A stretch of DNA of 51,599 nt from Hepatocystis sp. ex Piliocolobus tephrosceles. Lineage: Eukaryota > Apicomplexa > Aconoidasida > Haemosporida > Plasmodiidae. The DNA lies in contig CABPSV020000005.1 of NCBI GenBank assembly GCA_902459845.2, positions 1 through 51,599 on the forward strand, written 5' to 3'. The first letter of the stretch is position 1. Each line of letters begins with the position of its first letter. The notes beneath the pieces are model-generated. The model had not been told where the DNA came from. It saw only the letters and a program-made list of their open reading frames with translations, and did not search any database. The position numbers and the translations under genes are program-made. This document shows, in pieces, positions 78-51,599 of this stretch.

Positions 78-120
<43 letters not shown>
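1..120. repeat. Poly-T tract, interrupted only twice by CC
   Basis: About 120 nearly uninterrupted T residues open the window; the only breaks are CC dinucleotides near positions 71 and 78. Such tracts are common in Plasmodium spacers, but this is the longest here. Its true length is uncertain because homopolymers assemble poorly. Confidence 0.9.
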
Positions 121-123
<3 letters not shown>

Positions 124-675
124 TTATATATATATAATATACATACAATTATAGGCCTGTATGGATGTGGTTTTTATGTGTTTTTAAGTTTTAATAATTA
201 AAAAAATATTAATATATATATATATATATATAATGTATTAAACCCAAGTAAAATTTTATTTTTTTTTTTTTATATTTTTATCTTTATATATATTTATTTT
301 TATATTTATTTTTATACTTATATTTTTTTTTTTTTATAAAAATAAAGAATATACATTTTCATAAATAATTAACTCCTGAAGCCTTAATGGTTCAGTGGTT
401 ATGTAGGCGACTACAAACCACGAGGTCACAGGTTCGATTCCCGCAATGGTCAATTGCGAATTCGAATTTTGAAATACATTAACTAAGTGATTTGAACAGA
501 GAGTTTAAACATAAAACCTCAAGCTTTCCACAATTAATGAGTGGGTGTGAGCAGAGATCCAGTATCTCAAGCTTTCCGCCATTAGTGAGTGGGTGTGAGC
601 AGAGGACCAACGTCTCTAGTTCCTCATCATACGTCAAATGGATCACCTGCAGACTGACTGAAAACGCTTCCACAA

Positions 676-707
<32 letters not shown>

Positions 708-1060
708 TATATATGTATAATATACATACAATGTAAGTATAGACTGATAAGGATGTGGTTTTTATGTGTTTGTTTTTAAGTTTTAATAATTAAAAAAATA
801 TTAATATATATATAAATGAATATAACTGTATATAAATATTTATAAATATATATAAATATATATAAATATATATAAATATATAATGTATCAAACCCAAGCA
901 AAATTTTTTTTTTAATTTTTTATATTATATATGTATAATATACATACAGTGCAAGCATATGTCGATATAAATGTGCTTTTTATGTGTTTGTTTTTTTAAT
1001 TTTAATAATTGAAAAAATATTAATATATATATATATATATAAATATATAATTGTGGACTA
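121..1060. repeat. Three diverged copies of an AT-rich repeat (about 150-210 bp each)
   Basis: Copies begin at 121, 704 and 922. Each starts with an ATATTATATA..TATAATATACATACA block. It continues through a conserved core (TGTGGTTTTTATGTGTTTG or a close variant, then TTTTAATAATT followed by an AAAAATATTAATATATA stretch) into a variable (TA)n or TATAAATA run. Copies 1 and 2 end with a near-identical AATGTATnAAACCCAAG block before an A/T run; copy 3 diverges there. Copies 2 and 3 are nearly adjacent. Copy 1 is separated from copy 2 by the SINE-like insert at about 379-676. No coding potential is visible. Confidence 0.8.
379..676 (+). mobile_element. tRNA-headed SINE-like element (GC-rich island)
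   Basis: A roughly 300-base island of near-balanced base composition sits in otherwise extremely AT-rich DNA. Its 5' end (381-452) looks like a decayed tRNA. TGGTTCAGTGG at 388-398 matches the Pol III A box, and GGTTCGATTCC at 431-441 is a perfect B box, with about normal spacing. The acceptor and anticodon stems do not pair well, so a working tRNA is unlikely. A non-tRNA body follows, containing a 48-nt-spaced imperfect direct repeat (518 and 566) with CTCAAGCTTTCC and GTGGGTGTGAGCAGAG. The element stops at about 676 against a run of 26 T. Tail and target-site duplication are not clear. It could be a true insertion or a chimeric or contaminant assembly segment. Confidence 0.6.
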
Positions 1061-1431: not shown

Positions 1432-4401
1432 TTAGTGCATTAGGAGAAATTTCGTCACTACGATTTGTGTAATCATCAAATAAGTTAAAATTAAAAAAAA
1501 AAAGTATAATTTTGTGTTGAATAAATTTAAAAGTTTATTATAAAATAATACTAGAAAAATTGTTTTGTGTTGTATTGCAAAAATTATTTTAGTTGAATAT
1601 TCTTTTTGAAAATCATTTAAATTAATATTGTTTATATTGTAGGTACTGGTACTACTGTTTCTACCATTATTGCTAGTACTGTTGTCACTGGTACTCTTGC
1701 TGTTTGTATTTTTAGTACTACTAGATACCAAACCGTTGTTTGTTATTGTCACATGTTGTATATCTTCTCGAAAATTATTCATACCTTTGTAAGTATTCCT
1801 TTTATTAAGCATTCCTTTTATGGTTTGATAAAACTGTTTAACAAACTTGTTTTTATTTTTGTTTTTTTTACGATGAAATTGCCAACCATGTTTATAGTTC
1901 CATAGATTCTTTTTAAAAAATAATTCTAAATTAATTAATAGATCAACATCGTGTAAAACTAGTTCAAATAAATATAATGGGATAACACAAACAACTTTTT
2001 TTCGATCTTTTGTGTTATTACTATCACTAATGTTGTTGGCGTTGTCTTTATTATTTTTTTTATAAATACGAAACAAACGAAACTTTCTTTGCAAGTCATT
2101 TTTAAAATTAAACAAAAAGTTAAATAAATTCAGTTTATAATTTTTATTAAAAAAAAAAGAATAGTTTATATAAATATTATTTATATTATTGATTGTACAA
2201 TAATTTCCTTTATTAATATTTTTAAAAAATGATAATAATTCAGAATAAAAATCCTTATAACTCAAATTGGGGTTTACAACTTCTCCTTCCTTAGCATTTT
2301 TATTAAATCTATGATACTCTTTTGCTTTTTTTTCTAACATAAAATTTTTATCACTATTAAAATAAAAAACTAGGTCTAACTTATTTTTTATATTAAAGAA
2401 TGTTTTTAACGAGTTAAATTTTTCAAGTAGGTTTGATGAACAAGCATTAAAAGAAGTAGATACTTTTACTTTCGCACTATAAATATTATATAAATTGTTT
2501 AATAGAACTTCTTTATTTTCTGTTTTGGAAAACATAATGTATTTTAAAAATAATTTTTTTAATTTGTTATTTATTTTGTTTACAGTATTTGCAGCATTTG
2601 TAGCATTTGCCACATTTGCAGCATTTGTAACATTTGCAACATTTGTAACATTTGCAACATTTGCAGAATTTACAACATTTGCAGAATTTACAACATTTGC
2701 AGAATTTGCACCATTCGAAACATCCGAAACATTTAATTCGATTACATTTTTACTATCTTTTGATTTTAAAAAATATAAAAAGTTTTGAAACACATTTTTT
2801 TTTATCTTAATTTTAAATTCAAAAATTGTATTATAAACTCTTTTAATAAAAAAAAAAAAAAATTTGTTTTTATGTAAGTAATTATAAATTTCTTTTGCTT
2901 GCAAGGGGTTTCTAAAATAAGTAGGTAATATACCTCCCGTTGTTTTAAAATTAGCTTGTATTTTGTTTTGCACATTATGTGATGGTGTGTAATCAGAATT
3001 TTCGATATTTATTAAATTATTAAAAGCCGATTTATTTATCTCTTTTTTATACTCTTTATTTAAATTGACTCCACTAATCGAATAAGAAGAGTAATTGTTT
3101 TTTAGCTTATCTATTTCGATAATATCATTTATAAAAAGTAAATCGTAAGTATGTTTATTATTTTTATAATTTAAATTTTGAAAATATTTTATTTTAAATT
3201 TATTAGCATAATTAATAACATGTAAATAAGCCAAAGTTATATTTATACAAAACTCTAAAAGTGAACTAAAACCTTTTGATATGCTAGGAATAAGAATAAT
3301 TTTTTTATTTTCTATTATGTCTATTTCTAAAATATGTTTGTTAAGTATTTTATTAAAAAATAGTTTAACATGTATATAACTAAATAAATTAGATTTTGTT
3401 AACAAATTATACATATTTTCATCCCACTTGAAAATAGAACCTTCTTTTATATTCATTTTTTTCTCAAGAAATATTTTCAACTTATCTGATGTCATGACTG
3501 CTTTTTTTTCTAATCCATGATCCATAACATAACTGTTTATGATATTTTCTCGATCAAGAAGTATTAAATGTTGTTTATTTTTTTCAGAACTTTTGGTTGT
3601 GTCATTTTGTTTGAAACCGTTACTAGAGCTATTTTGTTTACACCCCTTAGTGATATTGTTTTGGTCAGACTTATTTTCGTTTATTTTTTTCCCCGTTCCC
3701 ATTCCAACATTCCTCCAAATGTTCTCTTTAAAATCTTTCGTTTTATCTTTTTTTTTATTTACTTTATAAACATTAATTTTAATACAGTTTTTGTCAAGTA
3801 TTAGTTCCTTCACATGTATAACTAACGTGTTTATATCTCCTTCTTTTTTTATTTCATATTTTAAAACGTTGGAAAACAAATAGTTATTTGAGGAATAATA
3901 ATCATTAATAATTTTTATTATTTTATCAATGTCTTTATATTTTATAATATTTATCTTATTATATTTCAGTAAATTTGTTAATATATTTGGATTAATTATA
4001 GTACTATTAATTACTACAGCTTTATCAATTGTTTCATTATTATTAGTATAATTATTTGAATTTGAAATATTAAAAATGTTTTTATAGTGATAAGTATTGC
4101 GGTTCTTGTTGATAATTCCATTGTTTGTATTCGTATATTTCAAAAGATATTTATTTTTAAAATCTTCCCATTGTTTTGTTTTCGTTTCAAAAAAAAACAA
4201 CCTTTTTGTACATGTCCTATGTTTTCGTGTGTTACTTGTTTTAATATTTCGGGGAGTATATTTACAATCTTTATCTTCATATTTTATACCAAATGGGATT
4301 GCAATATTTTTGTAATAGTTACTTATATTAATACATTGTATGTTGATAAACAAATATGTAAGAACAAGTAAACCATTGTATATTGTTAAAACATTTTTCA
4401 T
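1432..4401 (-). CDS. TOC75: TOC75-like Omp85-family apicoplast translocon protein
   Basis: This is a single-exon protein of 989 aa. It opens with a hydrophobic signal-peptide-like stretch (residues 1-23) followed by a basic Asn-rich leader, the bipartite layout of apicoplast-targeted proteins. Residues about 140-200 (IINDYYSSNNYLFSNV ... LVIHVKE) resemble an Omp85/Toc75 POTRA domain. A second POTRA-like unit follows at about 305-370 (IKEGSIFKWDENMYNLL ... HILEIDIIENK). The rest is a large divergent region expected to hold the beta-barrel, interrupted by low-complexity inserts, including Ala-Asn-Val/Thr repeats encoded near 2584-2715. Known family role: the outer-membrane channel for import of nucleus-encoded proteins into the apicoplast. 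The assignment rests on the POTRA pattern plus remembered chromosome 12 synteny; the barrel itself is not obvious by eye. Confidence 0.65.
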   Translation of the reverse strand: MKNVLTIYNGLLVLTYLFINIQCINISNYYKNIAIPFGIKYEDKDCKYTPRNIKTSNTRKHRTCTKRLFFFETKTKQWEDFKNKYLLKYTNTNNGIINKNRNTYHYKNIFNISNSNNYTNNNETIDKAVVINSTIINPNILTNLLKYNKINIIKYKDIDKIIKIINDYYSSNNYLFSNVLKYEIKKEGDINTLVIHVKELILDKNCIKINVYKVNKKKDKTKDFKENIWRNVGMGTGKKINENKSDQNNITKGCKQNSSSNGFKQNDTTKSSEKNKQHLILLDRENIINSYVMDHGLEKKAVMTSDKLKIFLEKKMNIKEGSIFKWDENMYNLLTKSNLFSYIHVKLFFNKILNKHILEIDIIENKKIILIPSISKGFSSLLEFCINITLAYLHVINYANKFKIKYFQNLNYKNNKHTYDLLFINDIIEIDKLKNNYSSYSISGVNLNKEYKKEINKSAFNNLINIENSDYTPSHNVQNKIQANFKTTGGILPTYFRNPLQAKEIYNYLHKNKFFFFFIKRVYNTIFEFKIKIKKNVFQNFLYFLKSKDSKNVIELNVSDVSNGANSANVVNSANVVNSANVANVTNVANVTNAANVANATNAANTVNKINNKLKKLFLKYIMFSKTENKEVLLNNLYNIYSAKVKVSTSFNACSSNLLEKFNSLKTFFNIKNKLDLVFYFNSDKNFMLEKKAKEYHRFNKNAKEGEVVNPNLSYKDFYSELLSFFKNINKGNYCTINNINNIYINYSFFFNKNYKLNLFNFLFNFKNDLQRKFRLFRIYKKNNKDNANNISDSNNTKDRKKVVCVIPLYLFELVLHDVDLLINLELFFKKNLWNYKHGWQFHRKKNKNKNKFVKQFYQTIKGMLNKRNTYKGMNNFREDIQHVTITNNGLVSSSTKNTNSKSTSDNSTSNNGRNSSTSTYNINNINLNDFQKEYSTKIIFAIQHKTIFLVLFYNKLLNLFNTKLYFFFLILTYLMITQIVVTKFLLMH
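2584..2715 (-). repeat. In-frame Ala-Asn-Val/Thr codon repeat in TOC75-like gene
   Basis: Degenerate 9- and 18-nt units (plus-strand ACATTTGCA/GCATTTGTA variants) encode a run of A-N-V, A-N-A and V-N-S tripeptides. The run lies between the second POTRA-like unit and the C-terminal part. It is low-complexity and most likely forms a solvent-exposed loop. Confidence 0.8.
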
Positions 4402-9500: not shown

Positions 9501-10393
9501 AAAACGTAGAAAAATTTTTAGATCTTACACAATTCCCTGTATAATTTTCAGGAGCATAACAAATATAATTTATTAAAGACCAACCATCAGGACACTCTTT
9601 TTCAAAATTTTCTTCACAATTACCTATACATGGCCATGATACATTACATTGTATAGAAAAGTTATATTTACTTATTGGTGTAGCATTTTTAAAAGATACT
9701 TTTTTATCACAAGGTCCTTTGTAATCTACTGGACTTAAACATGTTGTTCCATCTCCATAGTTACCCCATCTTTCAGGACAAACGTGTGAGTAATTAATAT
9801 CACATAACTCGTTTTCTGGGTTAGGTACCTTTAAACTTTCGGACGCTTTTGCAAGTTGAATTTTTACTTTTTCTTTGAGCACTGAAAAGGATATATATAT
9901 ATGTATTTTTATGAGTGTATGTAAGTACGTATGTATTTATATATGTATACGTTAGCGTAAAATAAAAGTAGAACATATCCATATATGATATAGTTTTAAG
10001 CACGTTCAAATAAGCATACATTAATACTATATATGTGTATAAACATGTATAAATATGTATTTATATACGTGTATAAACATGTATAAATATATGTGTATAA
10101 ACTTGTATAAATATGTATTTATATACGTGTATAAATGTATGTATATATATATTTTACTCGAACGTACCTACAAGCGGAACTTTTTTTAAAACATGAGAAA
10201 AAGAATTTACTAACTCTTCGCTAAAGGAAGATACATCATTAAAAATTTTAACATCGCTAGGTGCATTAAAAGATTTATCAGGATTATTTATGTCAGTATT
10301 TAAAACTTTCGCAAAAAAAATAGAATCTTTAACATCTGTTATAAAAAGTAATAAAAAAATTAAAAAAAAAGACACAACTCTCGTAAACACCAT
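6532..10393 (-). CDS. CPW-WPC family protein (two exons)
   Basis: Two exons on the minus strand. Exon 1 is 10168-10393 (signal peptide MVFTRVVSFFLIFLLLF...), with donor GTACGT. Exon 2 is 6532-9881, with acceptor TTTTCAG. The phase-1 junction forms a Val codon and the product is 1191 aa. I count about ten CPW-WPC modules, each with a CPxxW start, a central C-x-A/S-P-x-x-Y-x-G-P/T-C core and a C-x-x-x-WPC end. Five lie before and five after an Asn-rich spacer, and some modules lack one hallmark, for example IEWNH, IQWPL and NAVF endings. A Gly/Ser/Glu-rich insert splits the last module. Known family biology: secreted proteins of the zygote/ookinete stages, under translational repression in gametocytes. 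The exact function is unknown. Confidence 0.92.
6990..7110 (-). repeat. GC-rich 9-bp repeat encoding Ser-Gly-Glu
   Basis: Tandem GCCACTTTC units (plus strand) encode SGE/DGE/NGE tripeptides inside the last CPW-WPC module. Local GC is far above the surrounding gene and the units are nearly identical, which suggests recent slippage expansion. Confidence 0.85.
8255..8392 (-). repeat. 12-bp repeat encoding N-[LF]-T-[DN] units
   Basis: About eleven units of (plus strand) AAGTTATCTGTT and AAGTTATTTGTT encode a chain of LTDN, LTNN and FTNN. It sits in the spacer between the fifth and sixth CPW-WPC modules. Many overlapping N-x-T triplets result. Confidence 0.9.
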
Positions 10394-18774: not shown

Positions 18775-18874
18775 NNNNNNNNNNNNNNNNNNNNNNNNNN
18801 NNNNNNNNNNNNNNNNNNNNNNNNNNNNNNNNNNNNNNNNNNNNNNNNNNNNNNNNNNNNNNNNNNNNNNNNNN
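18775..18874. other. Assembly gap (100 N)
   Basis: Exactly 100 N, the usual placeholder for a gap of unknown size. It starts one codon into SF3B3 exon 5, and the sequence after it is non-coding, so the gene's end lies within the gap. Confidence 0.99.
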
Positions 18875-20833: not shown

Positions 20834-21604
20834 GAAAATATTAACATATGACAATATCCATTATGACAAATATATATATATGACATAACTTTCTTATCAA
20901 CTTGTTAGGCTCTAGATCATCTGCGTTGAAACCAATGTCCTCAAGTGGTATGAGTAGAGGAAATAACAGCAGTTCATTAAACCGTGCAGGAGGCAACATG
21001 ATGCAACCGTCACAGAAATCAGGAGGTTTTTTATCAAACATGATGGGAACTGTAGCTAGCGGAATGGCATCAGGTGTTGGATTTGGAGTAGCTCAAAGAG
21101 CTGTTGATGCCGTCATGGGTCCTAGACATGTTGAAGTTTCTCATCAAAATAATAATGAACAACTAAATCAAAATGGAGCAATGAGTACCGAAAGAAATAA
21201 TGATTTCAAATGTCAATCCATTAAAAATGAATTAAGCCAAGTAAAAAAAAAAATAATAAAAACTAAAACATAAAAATATGTACGCGTATATATATATGCA
21301 TACAAATGTACATAGATATACAATAACTTAATAAATATAATTTCATTATTGCTTTAAAGTATATACCGTTATCCATACACTTGCAACATTATGTTTTCTG
21401 TTATTATATATAGTATGCTTTTTTCTTATTTGACATTGATTTATTTGTTCATGTATCTGTCCATACATTTTTCAGTGCACTCATTTATTTATTTTTTTTT
21501 TTTTTTTTTTTTTTAATTCAATTTAGTGTTTGATGAACCATTCAGATATCAGCCTATGTCAAAACTATGCAGACTCATTAAAATCATGTCAACAATATAT
21601 GTAA
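20284..21604 (+). CDS. CHCHD2/MIX17-type twin CX9C mitochondrial protein (three exons)
   Basis: Exons are 20284-20320 (MGRSSKSRSGGF), 20909-21240 and 21527-21604; the phases join cleanly into 148 aa. The middle has a Gly/Ala-rich hydrophobic segment (GTVASGMASGVGFGVAQRAVDAVMG) like that of CHCHD2/CHCHD10. The C-terminus shows four cysteines: C-QSIKNELSQ-C, then nine residues, then C-QNYADSLKS-C. This is a twin CX9C (CHCH) fold. Its last pair is reached only by splicing in exon 3, which strongly supports the gene model. The family is imported into the mitochondrial intermembrane space by the disulfide relay and is linked to respiratory-chain and cristae function. The specific role in the parasite is not shown by the sequence. 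Confidence 0.88.
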
Positions 21605-45154: not shown

Positions 45155-47053
45155 ATGGTACGATTGTTAAAAAAAAAAAAAAAAAAAAAAAAATCAATGA
45201 GCAAATGGAGTAAAACATAGGAGTAAAAGCAACGTGTGTTGCAAAATGATATAATGTAATGCAAAACCCATTTTTTTGTTTTTTTTGCTAAATTTAAACT
45301 TAATACAAGGATACATAATTTTTTAGCGCTACATTTTCACATTTTCACATTTTCACATATACATATAGAAAAAAAAAAAAAAAAAAAAAAAAAAAATGTT
45401 ATATGTTATGCCCCTACAAATTTTTCCTTTTTTTTTTTATAGTTTAACACCGAAGCATTAAATGTTTTCGACAAAGAGTTGAGTGACATATTAAATTATG
45501 AAGAAAAAAGACAACGTGAAACAATCAACTTGATTGCTTCAGAGGTACCGATTTTTACACAAAAAAAAAAAAAAAAAATATACAATTGAATAGAGAATGA
45601 TAATACCATGCGTCTACATAAAAACACGAACGTTATACATACCATACACATACAGTATACACACCATACACATACAGTATACCCACCATACACATACAGT
45701 ATACACACCATACACATACAGTATACACACAATACACATACAGTATACACACAATACACATACAGTATACATACCTACACGTACAATAAATACATACTTT
45801 ATCCTACATGTACATGTCCACCTATCCAGAACTTAATTAACCAAGCAGTACGTGAATGCTTAGGACATGTTGTTAGCAATAAATATTCAGAAGGGTACCC
45901 AAAAAAAAGATATTACGGAGGAAATGATTATATAGATAAGATTGAAGAGTTATGTTGTAAAAGAGCATTAGAAACATTTAATGTAAGTGACGAAGAATGG
46001 GGTGTTAATGTTCAATCGTTATCAGGATCATGTGCTAATGTACAAGCACTTTATGCATTAGTAGGTTTAAAAGGAAAAATATTAGGTATGCATTTATGTT
46101 CTGGTGGACATTTAACTCATGGGTATTATGATGAAAAAAGAAAAGTATCTATTACATCTGATATGTTTGAATCTAGATTGTATAAATCTAATAGTGAAGG
46201 TTATATAGATTATGCTACAGTACGAGAAATGGCCCAGTCATTTAAACCACAGGTTATAATATGTGGATATTCAGCTTACCCAAGAGATTTATGTTATAAA
46301 AAATTTAGAGAAATATGTGATGAAGTAAATGCATATTTATTTGTTGATATATCACACTATTCAGGTTTTGTTGCTACTAAATTGCTGAACAATCCTTTTG
46401 AATATGCTGATATAGTTACAACGACTACTCATAAACTTATTAGAGGTCCAAGAAGTGCTTTGATATTTTTTAATAAAAAAAGAGTTGAAGGAATAGAACA
46501 AAAAATTAATAGTGCTGTTTTTCCATCATTCCAAGGTGGACCACATAATAATAAAATAGCTGCAGTAGCTTGTCAATTAAAGGAAGTAAACTCAGATAGT
46601 TATAAAAATTATGCTAAACAAGTATTACTAAATACCAAAGCCTTAGCTAAGTGTTTAATGGATAATAACATTGAATTAGTAACAAATGGTACAGATAACC
46701 ATCTTATTTTAGTGAATTTAAAAAATCAAAATATAACTGGTTCAAAATTACAAGAAACGTGTAATGCTATAAATGTTGCTTTAAATAAAAACACCATCCC
46801 ATCAGATATTAATTGTGTTTCACCTAGTGGGGTTCGTATAGGTACACCATGCATAACTACAAGAGGAGCTAAAGAGAAAGATATGGAATTTATTGCGAAT
46901 ATTTTGATCAGAGCAATTAAAATAACAATAGATATACAAGATAAATTCGGTAAAAAATTAATAGATTTTAAAAAAGGACTCATCAATAACTCTGACATTG
47001 AACAGTTAAAATCAGAGGTTATTCAATGGGCAAATTCCTTACCATTCCCTTAA
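45155..47053 (+). CDS. SHMT: Serine hydroxymethyltransferase (three exons, first exon = ATG only)
   Basis: Exons 45155-45157 (ATG, donor GTACGA), 45443-45544 and 45830-47053 give 442 aa, the usual length for Plasmodium cytosolic SHMT. Exon 2 (FNTEALNVFDKEL ... TINLIASE) is preceded in frame by TAG and has no internal Met, so the start must be spliced in. The enzyme converts serine and tetrahydrofolate to glycine and 5,10-methylene-THF, feeding dTMP synthesis. Visible: YSEGYP, the PLP lysine K237 in TTTTHKLIRGPRS, GGPHNNK, and GSKLQETCNAIN. Cys125 (MHLCSGG) and Cys364 (DINCVSPSG) sit at the positions reported as a redox pair in the P. falciparum enzyme. The open frame running upstream from 45830 to 45608 is a chance extension through an intronic minisatellite. 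Confidence 0.95.
45643..45774. repeat. 22-bp minisatellite inside SHMT intron 2
   Basis: Six units of 22 bp share CATACACATACAGTATAC plus four variable bases (ACAC, CCAC). It lies between the GTACCG donor at 45545 and the CTATCCAG acceptor ending at 45829. It is A/C-rich on the plus strand, unlike the pure A+T runs around it. Confidence 0.93.

Positions 47054-51549: not shown

Positions 51550-51599
<50 letters not shown>
50682..51599. other. Intergenic, 3' of ATP synthase beta, ending in poly-A
   Basis: AT-rich spacer with a (TA)n run at 50727-50748, followed by about six tandem alternations of TATATGTATATG and TACGTATG to about 50822. CA-rich microsatellite-like stretches near 51200-51225 and 51415-51475 are slightly less AT-rich. 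The window ends in about 47 A residues. No gene is seen. Confidence 0.5.

What the first reader, a model, noticed from the sequence alone, without database searches (positions are those of the whole stretch)
379..676. tRNA-derived SINE-like insert in a Plasmodium core region
A ~300-base island of much higher GC than its surroundings has Pol III A and B boxes in tRNA spacing, a decayed cloverleaf, an unrelated body with a 48-nt-spaced direct repeat and an abrupt end at a homopolymer. Plasmodium nuclear genomes are generally thought to have no SINEs, and only some avian parasites are reported to carry retroelements. It is either a new short retroelement or a foreign/contaminant segment joined in assembly.
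Basis: partly seen in the sequence, partly recalled or inferred. Interest (0 to 1): 0.75.

Follow-up and report, generated by a model that had tools for sequence, protein, structure and literature searches.

The report
GC-rich tRNA-like gene in Hepatocystis
A 295-base GC-rich island in a monkey malaria-like parasite looks more like a native gene for an unknown RNA with a tRNA-type promoter than like a jumping element or contamination, but sequencing reads are still needed to prove it.

Summary
Bases ~379-675 form the most GC-rich 297-base stretch of the window (43% against 23%), with perfect A and B boxes at true tRNA spacing, two 48-nt repeats and an end at a 27-T run. The genome is Hepatocystis sp. 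from a red colobus, a lineage nested within Plasmodium. The island is not called a tRNA by ARAGORN or Rfam. No second copy of its body, and no RVT_1-type reverse transcriptase, turned up in the 12.4 Mb held.

The new evidence is a second locus, on contig C583. It carries the same AT-rich unit, a T-rich tract and a similar 5' flank ending in an A box at the same 50-base spacing. Similarity upstream of the head argues against SINE retroposition and against a foreign join at the left border. The box-bearing strand folds better than shuffles; the other strand does not.

Best reading: a native Pol III ncRNA gene with an internal tRNA-type promoter, similar in kind to the P. falciparum RUF6 family but not shown to belong to it, with a broken or decayed paralogue on C583. 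A misassembly downstream of the A box is not excluded: similarity to C583 fades there, and the right border is a homopolymer in a short-read assembly. No relative of the body was found in any collection searched.

The parts
121..258 (+). Unit A: AT-rich intergenic repeat unit upstream of the island
   Evidence: 121-242 is 85% identical to unit B; window 101-287 aligns to the C583 copy at 82% over 199 columns, E 4e-53 in a two-sequence comparison without low-complexity filter
259..335 (+). T-rich low-complexity tract between unit A and the flank; C583 has a T-rich tract at the same place
   Evidence: the distance from unit start to AAAGAATATA is 224 bases here and 194 on C583
336..380 (+). AT-rich 5' flank of the tRNA-like head; 344-398 aligns without gaps to C583 (40 of 55 identical; 32 of 44 without the A box)
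   Evidence: 0 of 1000 dinucleotide shuffles reach the score; 33.0 bits with the A box, highest among 196 overlapping strand-loci, next 25.4; without the A box only third; AAAGAATATA-to-AGTGG distance 50 bases at both loci; identities
381..452 (+). tRNA-like head, inferred 5' end of a Pol III transcript
   Evidence: not called a tRNA
388..398 (+). A box
431..441 (+). B box
395..421 (+). Predicted 11-pair hairpin with one bulge and a GCGA loop, in place of a cloverleaf
   Evidence: 0 of 200 shuffles of 396-422 fold as well, though the head as a whole, 379-452, is ordinary (26 of 200)
453..675 (+). Body of the putative ncRNA
   Evidence: no second copy found in own genome; no Rfam match at E<=10
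518..565 (+). 48-nt repeat, copy 1
566..613 (+). 48-nt repeat, copy 2 (83% identical to copy 1)
676..702 (+). 27-T run; would end a Pol III transcript, and is also the T leader of unit B
   Evidence: first T-run of 5 or more after 381; T-runs, some interrupted, also precede unit A, unit C and the C583 unit
704..905 (+). Unit B, a further copy of the upstream unit
   Evidence: query
922..1049 (+). Unit C, a further copy of the upstream unit
   Evidence: 85% identical to unit B

Best explanation
Bases 381-675 are most likely a native non-coding RNA gene of Hepatocystis, transcribed by RNA polymerase III from an internal tRNA-type (type 2) promoter, as is inferred for the GC-rich RUF6 genes of P. 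falciparum. TFIIIC would bind the A and B boxes, Pol III would start near 380 and stop in the T-run at 676-702, giving a ~300-nt structured RNA. Its likeliest origin is a diverged tRNA gene fused to a body that contains a 48-nt duplication. Part of the locus (upstream unit, T-rich tract, 5' flank, A box) was duplicated to or from contig C583, where the gene is broken or decayed. Shown: boxes and spacing, GC contrast, strand-specific folding, the shared upstream context. Inferred: transcription, start and stop points, origin and any function; a folded RNA with a regulatory or structural role is the working guess.
For: Perfect A and B boxes at tRNA spacing; 3 such places in the genome, the other two being tRNA genes, 0 in the control. 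tRNA resemblance beyond the boxes (4 of 500). The box strand of 381-675 folds at z -2.8 with 0 of 200 shuffles as good, and 379-690 with 1 of 100; the opposite strand is at z -0.3, 79 of 200. 27 T just behind, no T-run of 5 or more inside (weak, 1549 of 2000 shuffles also lack one). 43% GC in a 23% GC window fits constraint or recent origin (inference). Native context: the C583 locus shares unit, T tract, flank and A box in order. Precedent: RUF6, GC-rich genes with internal A and B boxes (PMC6974570, passages, whole Discussion).
Against: No transcript and no conservation in another species could be tested. Behind the A box the two loci share little: a local alignment of 399-676 is at chance (557 of 1000 shuffles reach it); end-to-end scores are reached by 146, 52, 13, 15 and 11 of 1000 shuffles for 40, 60, 80, 100 and 120 bases, and 9 of 2705 offsets on the same locus do as well for 80 bases, the best lying elsewhere. 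C583 has no recognisable B box, and its head folds no better than shuffles (105 of 200). The flank without the A box is not exceptional across all fetched loci (20.3 bits, third; plain scores of 35-37 elsewhere), so its weight rests on the place being fixed beforehand by the unit match. Genome searches from either side did not return the other locus (330-470 of the window; L010 1640-1860; flank pattern). The T-run belongs to unit B anyway. 500-675 alone and 379-452 alone do not fold better than shuffles (37 of 200; 26 of 200).
Confidence: 0.5

Rival explanations
1. A foreign tRNA-derived repeat, for example a contaminant animal SINE, was joined into the Hepatocystis contig by the assembler, closing at the T-run on the right.
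For: The assembly was made from short 10x reads of monkey blood with Supernova, SPAdes and Canu, then scaffolded and gap-filled (PMC7425995, passages). The right border is a 27-T run that a short-read assembler can cross wrongly (inference). GC differs sharply from the surroundings. No other copy of the body was found in the 12.39 Mb held, and similarity to C583 fades just behind the A box.
Against: The left flank and A box recur beside the same unit on C583 with the same 50-base spacing, so a join would have to fall in or just behind the A box in register. CpG observed/expected is 0.72, window 0.85, unlike an old methylated primate repeat (inference). No related body in GTDB or viral contigs (exact patterns), plasmids or phages or the protein collection (two frames); I know of no animal genome set among the DNA collections, so this is weak.
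Confidence: 0.25
2. A true SINE-type retroposon insertion, from a Hepatocystis family or acquired from host or vector.
For: tRNA-like head, unrelated body and T-rich site, the classical SINE layout.
Against: No second copy of the body found, no RVT_1 found in the held genome, no target-site duplication seen, no poly-A tail on the sense strand, and similarity to the second locus lies upstream of the head. A survey of 64 apicomplexan genomes reports no SINE family in the passages I saw; Hepatocystis has 0 mentions in its main text (PMC9141347).
Confidence: 0.12
3. A decayed tRNA pseudogene with neutral sequence behind it and no function.
For: The cloverleaf is broken, the head alone folds no better than shuffles, and C583 shows that such a locus can decay.
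Against: Both boxes are perfect, GC has not drifted to the local level, and the box strand of 381-675 folds better than shuffles.
Confidence: 0.13

Closest known systems
RUF6 / GC-rich ncRNA family of Plasmodium (subgenus Laverania)
   Same: GC-rich gene in an AT-rich parasite genome, internal A and B boxes, Pol III transcription inferred by its authors (PMC6974570; PMC9262227 passages)
   Different: RUF6 has 15 members, beside some central var genes, and is described as conserved throughout Laverania. Here one body copy was found, next to conserved core genes. RUF6 is shorter, as I recall. Its sequence was not at hand for comparison.
tRNA-derived SINE
   Same: tRNA-like head with A and B boxes, unrelated body
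   Different: No family of copies found, no RVT_1 found, no target-site duplication seen; similarity to a second locus lies upstream of the head
tRNA gene
   Same: Box sequences and spacing; head resembles nuclear tRNA genes beyond the boxes
   Different: Not called by ARAGORN or Rfam; the predicted fold has one long hairpin with a GCGA loop
Ty3/Gypsy fragments of avian Plasmodium and Haemoproteus
   Same: Mobile elements reported in haemosporidians (PMC5880244 passages; PMC9141347 passages)
   Different: LTR elements coding for gag-pol; the island matches no such protein

Membership tests
tRNA-derived SINE | tRNA-related head with internal Pol III promoter | tested here: met
tRNA-derived SINE | Many dispersed copies | tested here: not met
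   Body: no other copy in the 12.39 Mb held of a published 19.95 Mb genome. Flank and A box: one further place, C583
tRNA-derived SINE | Copies share sequence from the head onward and differ upstream | tested here: not met
   One pair only: C583 shares the upstream unit and flank and fades behind the A box
tRNA-derived SINE | Target-site duplications and a LINE-type tail | tested here: inconclusive
   Shared words of 9 or more bases between 301-381 and 676-770 are T-runs and one AT-rich 9-mer at 348; T-runs hide a duplication if there is one
tRNA-derived SINE | Partner reverse transcriptase in the genome | tested here: not met
   PF00078: no match in the held part; other RT models not searched
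RUF6-like GC-rich Pol III ncRNA | GC-rich against the genome, with internal A and B boxes | tested here: met
RUF6-like GC-rich Pol III ncRNA | Sequence homology to RUF6 | not tested
RUF6-like GC-rich Pol III ncRNA | Multicopy, next to central var genes | tested here: not met
   Single body copy found; neighbours are conserved core-type genes
RUF6-like GC-rich Pol III ncRNA | Transcribed by Pol III | not testable with these tools
   No expression data at hand
tRNA gene | Cloverleaf recognised by ARAGORN or the Rfam tRNA model | tested here: not met
SRP RNA | Match to an SRP RNA model | tested here: not met
   No Rfam match for the island at E<=10; RF00017 has no match at E<=0.001 anywhere in the held genome

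The most novel reading that the evidence does not exclude
Hepatocystis carries a GC-rich, tRNA-promoted Pol III ncRNA gene outside Laverania, of independent origin from RUF6 or from a common ancestor, next to core genes and with no var genes to regulate (their absence is recalled; the genome paper's main text has 0 mentions of 'var gene'). Such RNAs would then not be tied to var switching.
Probability: 0.35. Interest if true: 0.6.

Novelty: new variant of a known kind. Interest (0 to 1): 0.42.

Why it matters
RUF6 is described from Laverania, where it is linked to var gene choice. A GC-rich gene with the same promoter type in a mammalian haemosporidian, next to core genes, would allow a test of whether this class of RNA predates or is independent of var regulation. 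If it is an artefact instead, it is a useful warning about T-run joins in blood-derived parasite assemblies.

Tried and rejected
Known RNA: Rfam on the whole window at gathering, on the island at E<=10 and on the C583 region (two matches at E 1.3 and 1.7, far below their gathering scores, taken as chance) gave nothing. SRP RNA or Alu contamination: RF00017 has no match in the held genome. Coding: the 48-nt spacing equals 16 codons and one + frame is open across it, but one + frame and one - frame (2 of 6), searched with X at the stops, found no protein at E<=10. Foreign source: exact patterns of body or head found nothing in GTDB contigs or viral contigs; blastn found nothing in plasmids; in phages it found 14 records with short pieces at E 0.09 or worse, 6 of them in annotated tRNAs. 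Sequence strings in the literature: none.

Other places fitting the head pattern with up to 3 mismatches (17 places; the pattern was made from C5 and C583, so those two fit by construction): one apicoplast tRNA, 11 in a low-complexity array on C178, and single ones on C42, C200 and C301 that I did not follow up; the control gave 2. In one search some tRNAs were compared in the wrong orientation; one search repeats it with orientation corrected, on the 23 nuclear genes of the 47 over Rfam's cut-off (24 lie on C611, which I take to be the apicoplast).

Print: statements on what is not reported rest on searches and on word counts in PMC7425995 and PMC9141347. One search listed 12 of 6,484 papers, none with the word Hepatocystis. 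PMC7425995 counts 19 ncRNA genes in its table; I could not see which, so this island may be among them.

Full report
Source. The window is the whole of contig C5 (51,599 bases) of an assembly with 12.39 Mb in 611 contigs; it contains one gap of 100 N at 18775-18874. Its serine hydroxymethyltransferase is 100% identical, over 85% of the query, to Hepatocystis sp. ex Piliocolobus tephrosceles; four Plasmodium proteins follow at 77-80%. That database record lies on a contig of 64,320 bases, so the sequence held here is cut or assembled differently. Of 11 ORFs of 150 aa or more, 10 were scanned and the last: eight have a Pfam match over its cut-off (CPW-WPC, RSE1/DDB1/CPSF1 type, PIH1, RING, EF-G type, MT-A70, SHMT, V/A-type ATPase); the ORF nearest the island (1432-4401, minus) has only a POTRA match just below cut-off; two have none. 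The RSE1-type ORF matches SF3B3 best and the EF-G-type ORF ribosome-releasing factor 2. The published genome has 19.95 Mb and was assembled from short 10x reads of red colobus blood; Hepatocystis is described as nested within Plasmodium (PMC7425995; passages, section 17). If this is that genome, about 62% is held, so copy counts are lower bounds.

Observation. The GC contrast, boxes, repeats and T-run end are present. The A+B pattern occurs at 3 places in the genome, and the other two are tRNA genes. The distance from head start to B box is that of true tRNAs. The head is not called a tRNA by ARAGORN or Rfam, yet it resembles nuclear tRNA genes more than shuffles that keep both boxes (4 of 500). 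In one search the nine best loci for 399-475 are all loci fetched for tRNA genes, but that stretch includes the B box.

Copies. Searches with the whole island, a 23-base body pattern (up to 3 mismatches; it found only the two tandem repeats) and a 29-base flank pattern (up to 3 mismatches) found only this place. A search with 330-470 at E<=10 returned only this place and one hit at E 9.9 in the neighbouring T-rich tract. No RVT_1 was found.

The second locus. A search with unit B (704-905) gave 71 matches: units A, B and C of this contig, one nearly full unit on C583 at 9533-9661, and 67 that begin at query position 56 or later, in the low-complexity part. C583 was thus picked by the unit alone. 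Reading on there, the unit is followed by a T-rich tract and then by a stretch aligning without gaps to window 344-398 (40 of 55 identical, 32 of 44 without the A box). The distance from AAAGAATATA to AGTGG is 50 bases at both loci; from unit start to AAAGAATATA it is 224 and 194. The plain score beats 1000 of 1000 dinucleotide shuffles with or without the A box.

Controls against it. In 98 overlapping loci and window pieces, both strands, AT-rich sequence elsewhere reaches plain scores of 35-37, against 39 here with the A box and 35 without. With composition-aware scoring the place is first with the A box (33.0 bits, next 25.4) and third without (20.3, after 21.8 and 20.4). Genome searches started from either locus did not return the other. 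I therefore rely on the place having been fixed beforehand by the unit match. Behind the A box, local similarity is at chance (557 of 1000 shuffles), and end-to-end similarity is weak (13 of 1000 for 80 bases; 9 of 2705 offsets as good). No B box is recognisable. C583 also carries an E1-type (ThiF, UBA_E1_SCCH) and a p24-type (EMP24_GP25L) gene.

What this means. A retroposed SINE shares sequence from its head onward and not upstream (established knowledge of SINEs). Here the shared part lies upstream and stops inside the head, which fits a DNA-level duplication of a locus with its 5' region. It also makes a foreign join at the left border unlikely. The right border stays open: the T-run that ends the island is also the leader of unit B.

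Structure. The + strand of 381-675 folds better than 200 of 200 shuffles (z -2.8), and 379-690 than 99 of 100; the opposite strand of 381-675 does not (79 of 200 as good). By parts: 381-500, 1 of 200 as good (opposite strand 12 of 200); 500-675, 37 of 200; 505-620 with both repeats, 3 of 200; 440-560, 21 of 200; 530-676, 55 of 200; the head alone, 379-452, 26 of 200. Within the head one hairpin of 11 pairs with a GCGA loop is predicted, not a cloverleaf. With one sequence, covariation cannot be tested.

Comparison. The nearest known kind is RUF6, GC-rich genes with internal A and B boxes, described as conserved throughout Laverania (PMC6974570; 12 of 29 passages, whole Discussion). I could not compare sequences, and multicopy number and var neighbourhood are not met, so this is not filed as RUF6. 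A survey of 64 apicomplexan genomes names Gypsy-like and LINE-like elements and describes a tRNA-scan step for SINE candidates; in the 12 of 25 passages I saw it reports no SINE family, and its main text has no mention of Hepatocystis (PMC9141347). PMC7425995 lists 19 ncRNA genes for this genome, and this one may be among them.

Judgement. A native Pol III ncRNA gene is the best single reading at 0.5; a misjoin 0.25, a pseudogene 0.13, a SINE 0.12. Reads across the two borders would settle most of this.

Noticed in passing
window 121-1049 and G000:C583 9533-9661: An AT-rich ~130-200 base unit occurs three times here and once on C583, each preceded by a T-run, some of them interrupted; on the minus strand each copy would end in an A-run. 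Origin unknown.
   Followed up: partly
window 18775-18874; 1-120; 51553-51599: A run of 100 N shows a scaffold gap, and the window starts with a T-rich run of 120 bases and ends with 47 A, so its ends look assembly-limited. The database record of its SHMT lies on a contig of 64,320 bases.
   Followed up: no
window 20902-21273: GC-rich ORF whose sequence recalls CHCHD2/Mix17-type mitochondrial proteins (recalled); Pfam gives no match.
   Followed up: partly
G000:C178 11254-11464: Low-complexity array of TGGTTTAG-like units that fits the A-box pattern by composition.
   Followed up: no
window 45608-47053: The SHMT ORF is 481 aa against 442 aa in its closest relatives, and a 22-base tandem repeat (45634-45785) lies at its start, so the true start is probably further in.
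   Followed up: no
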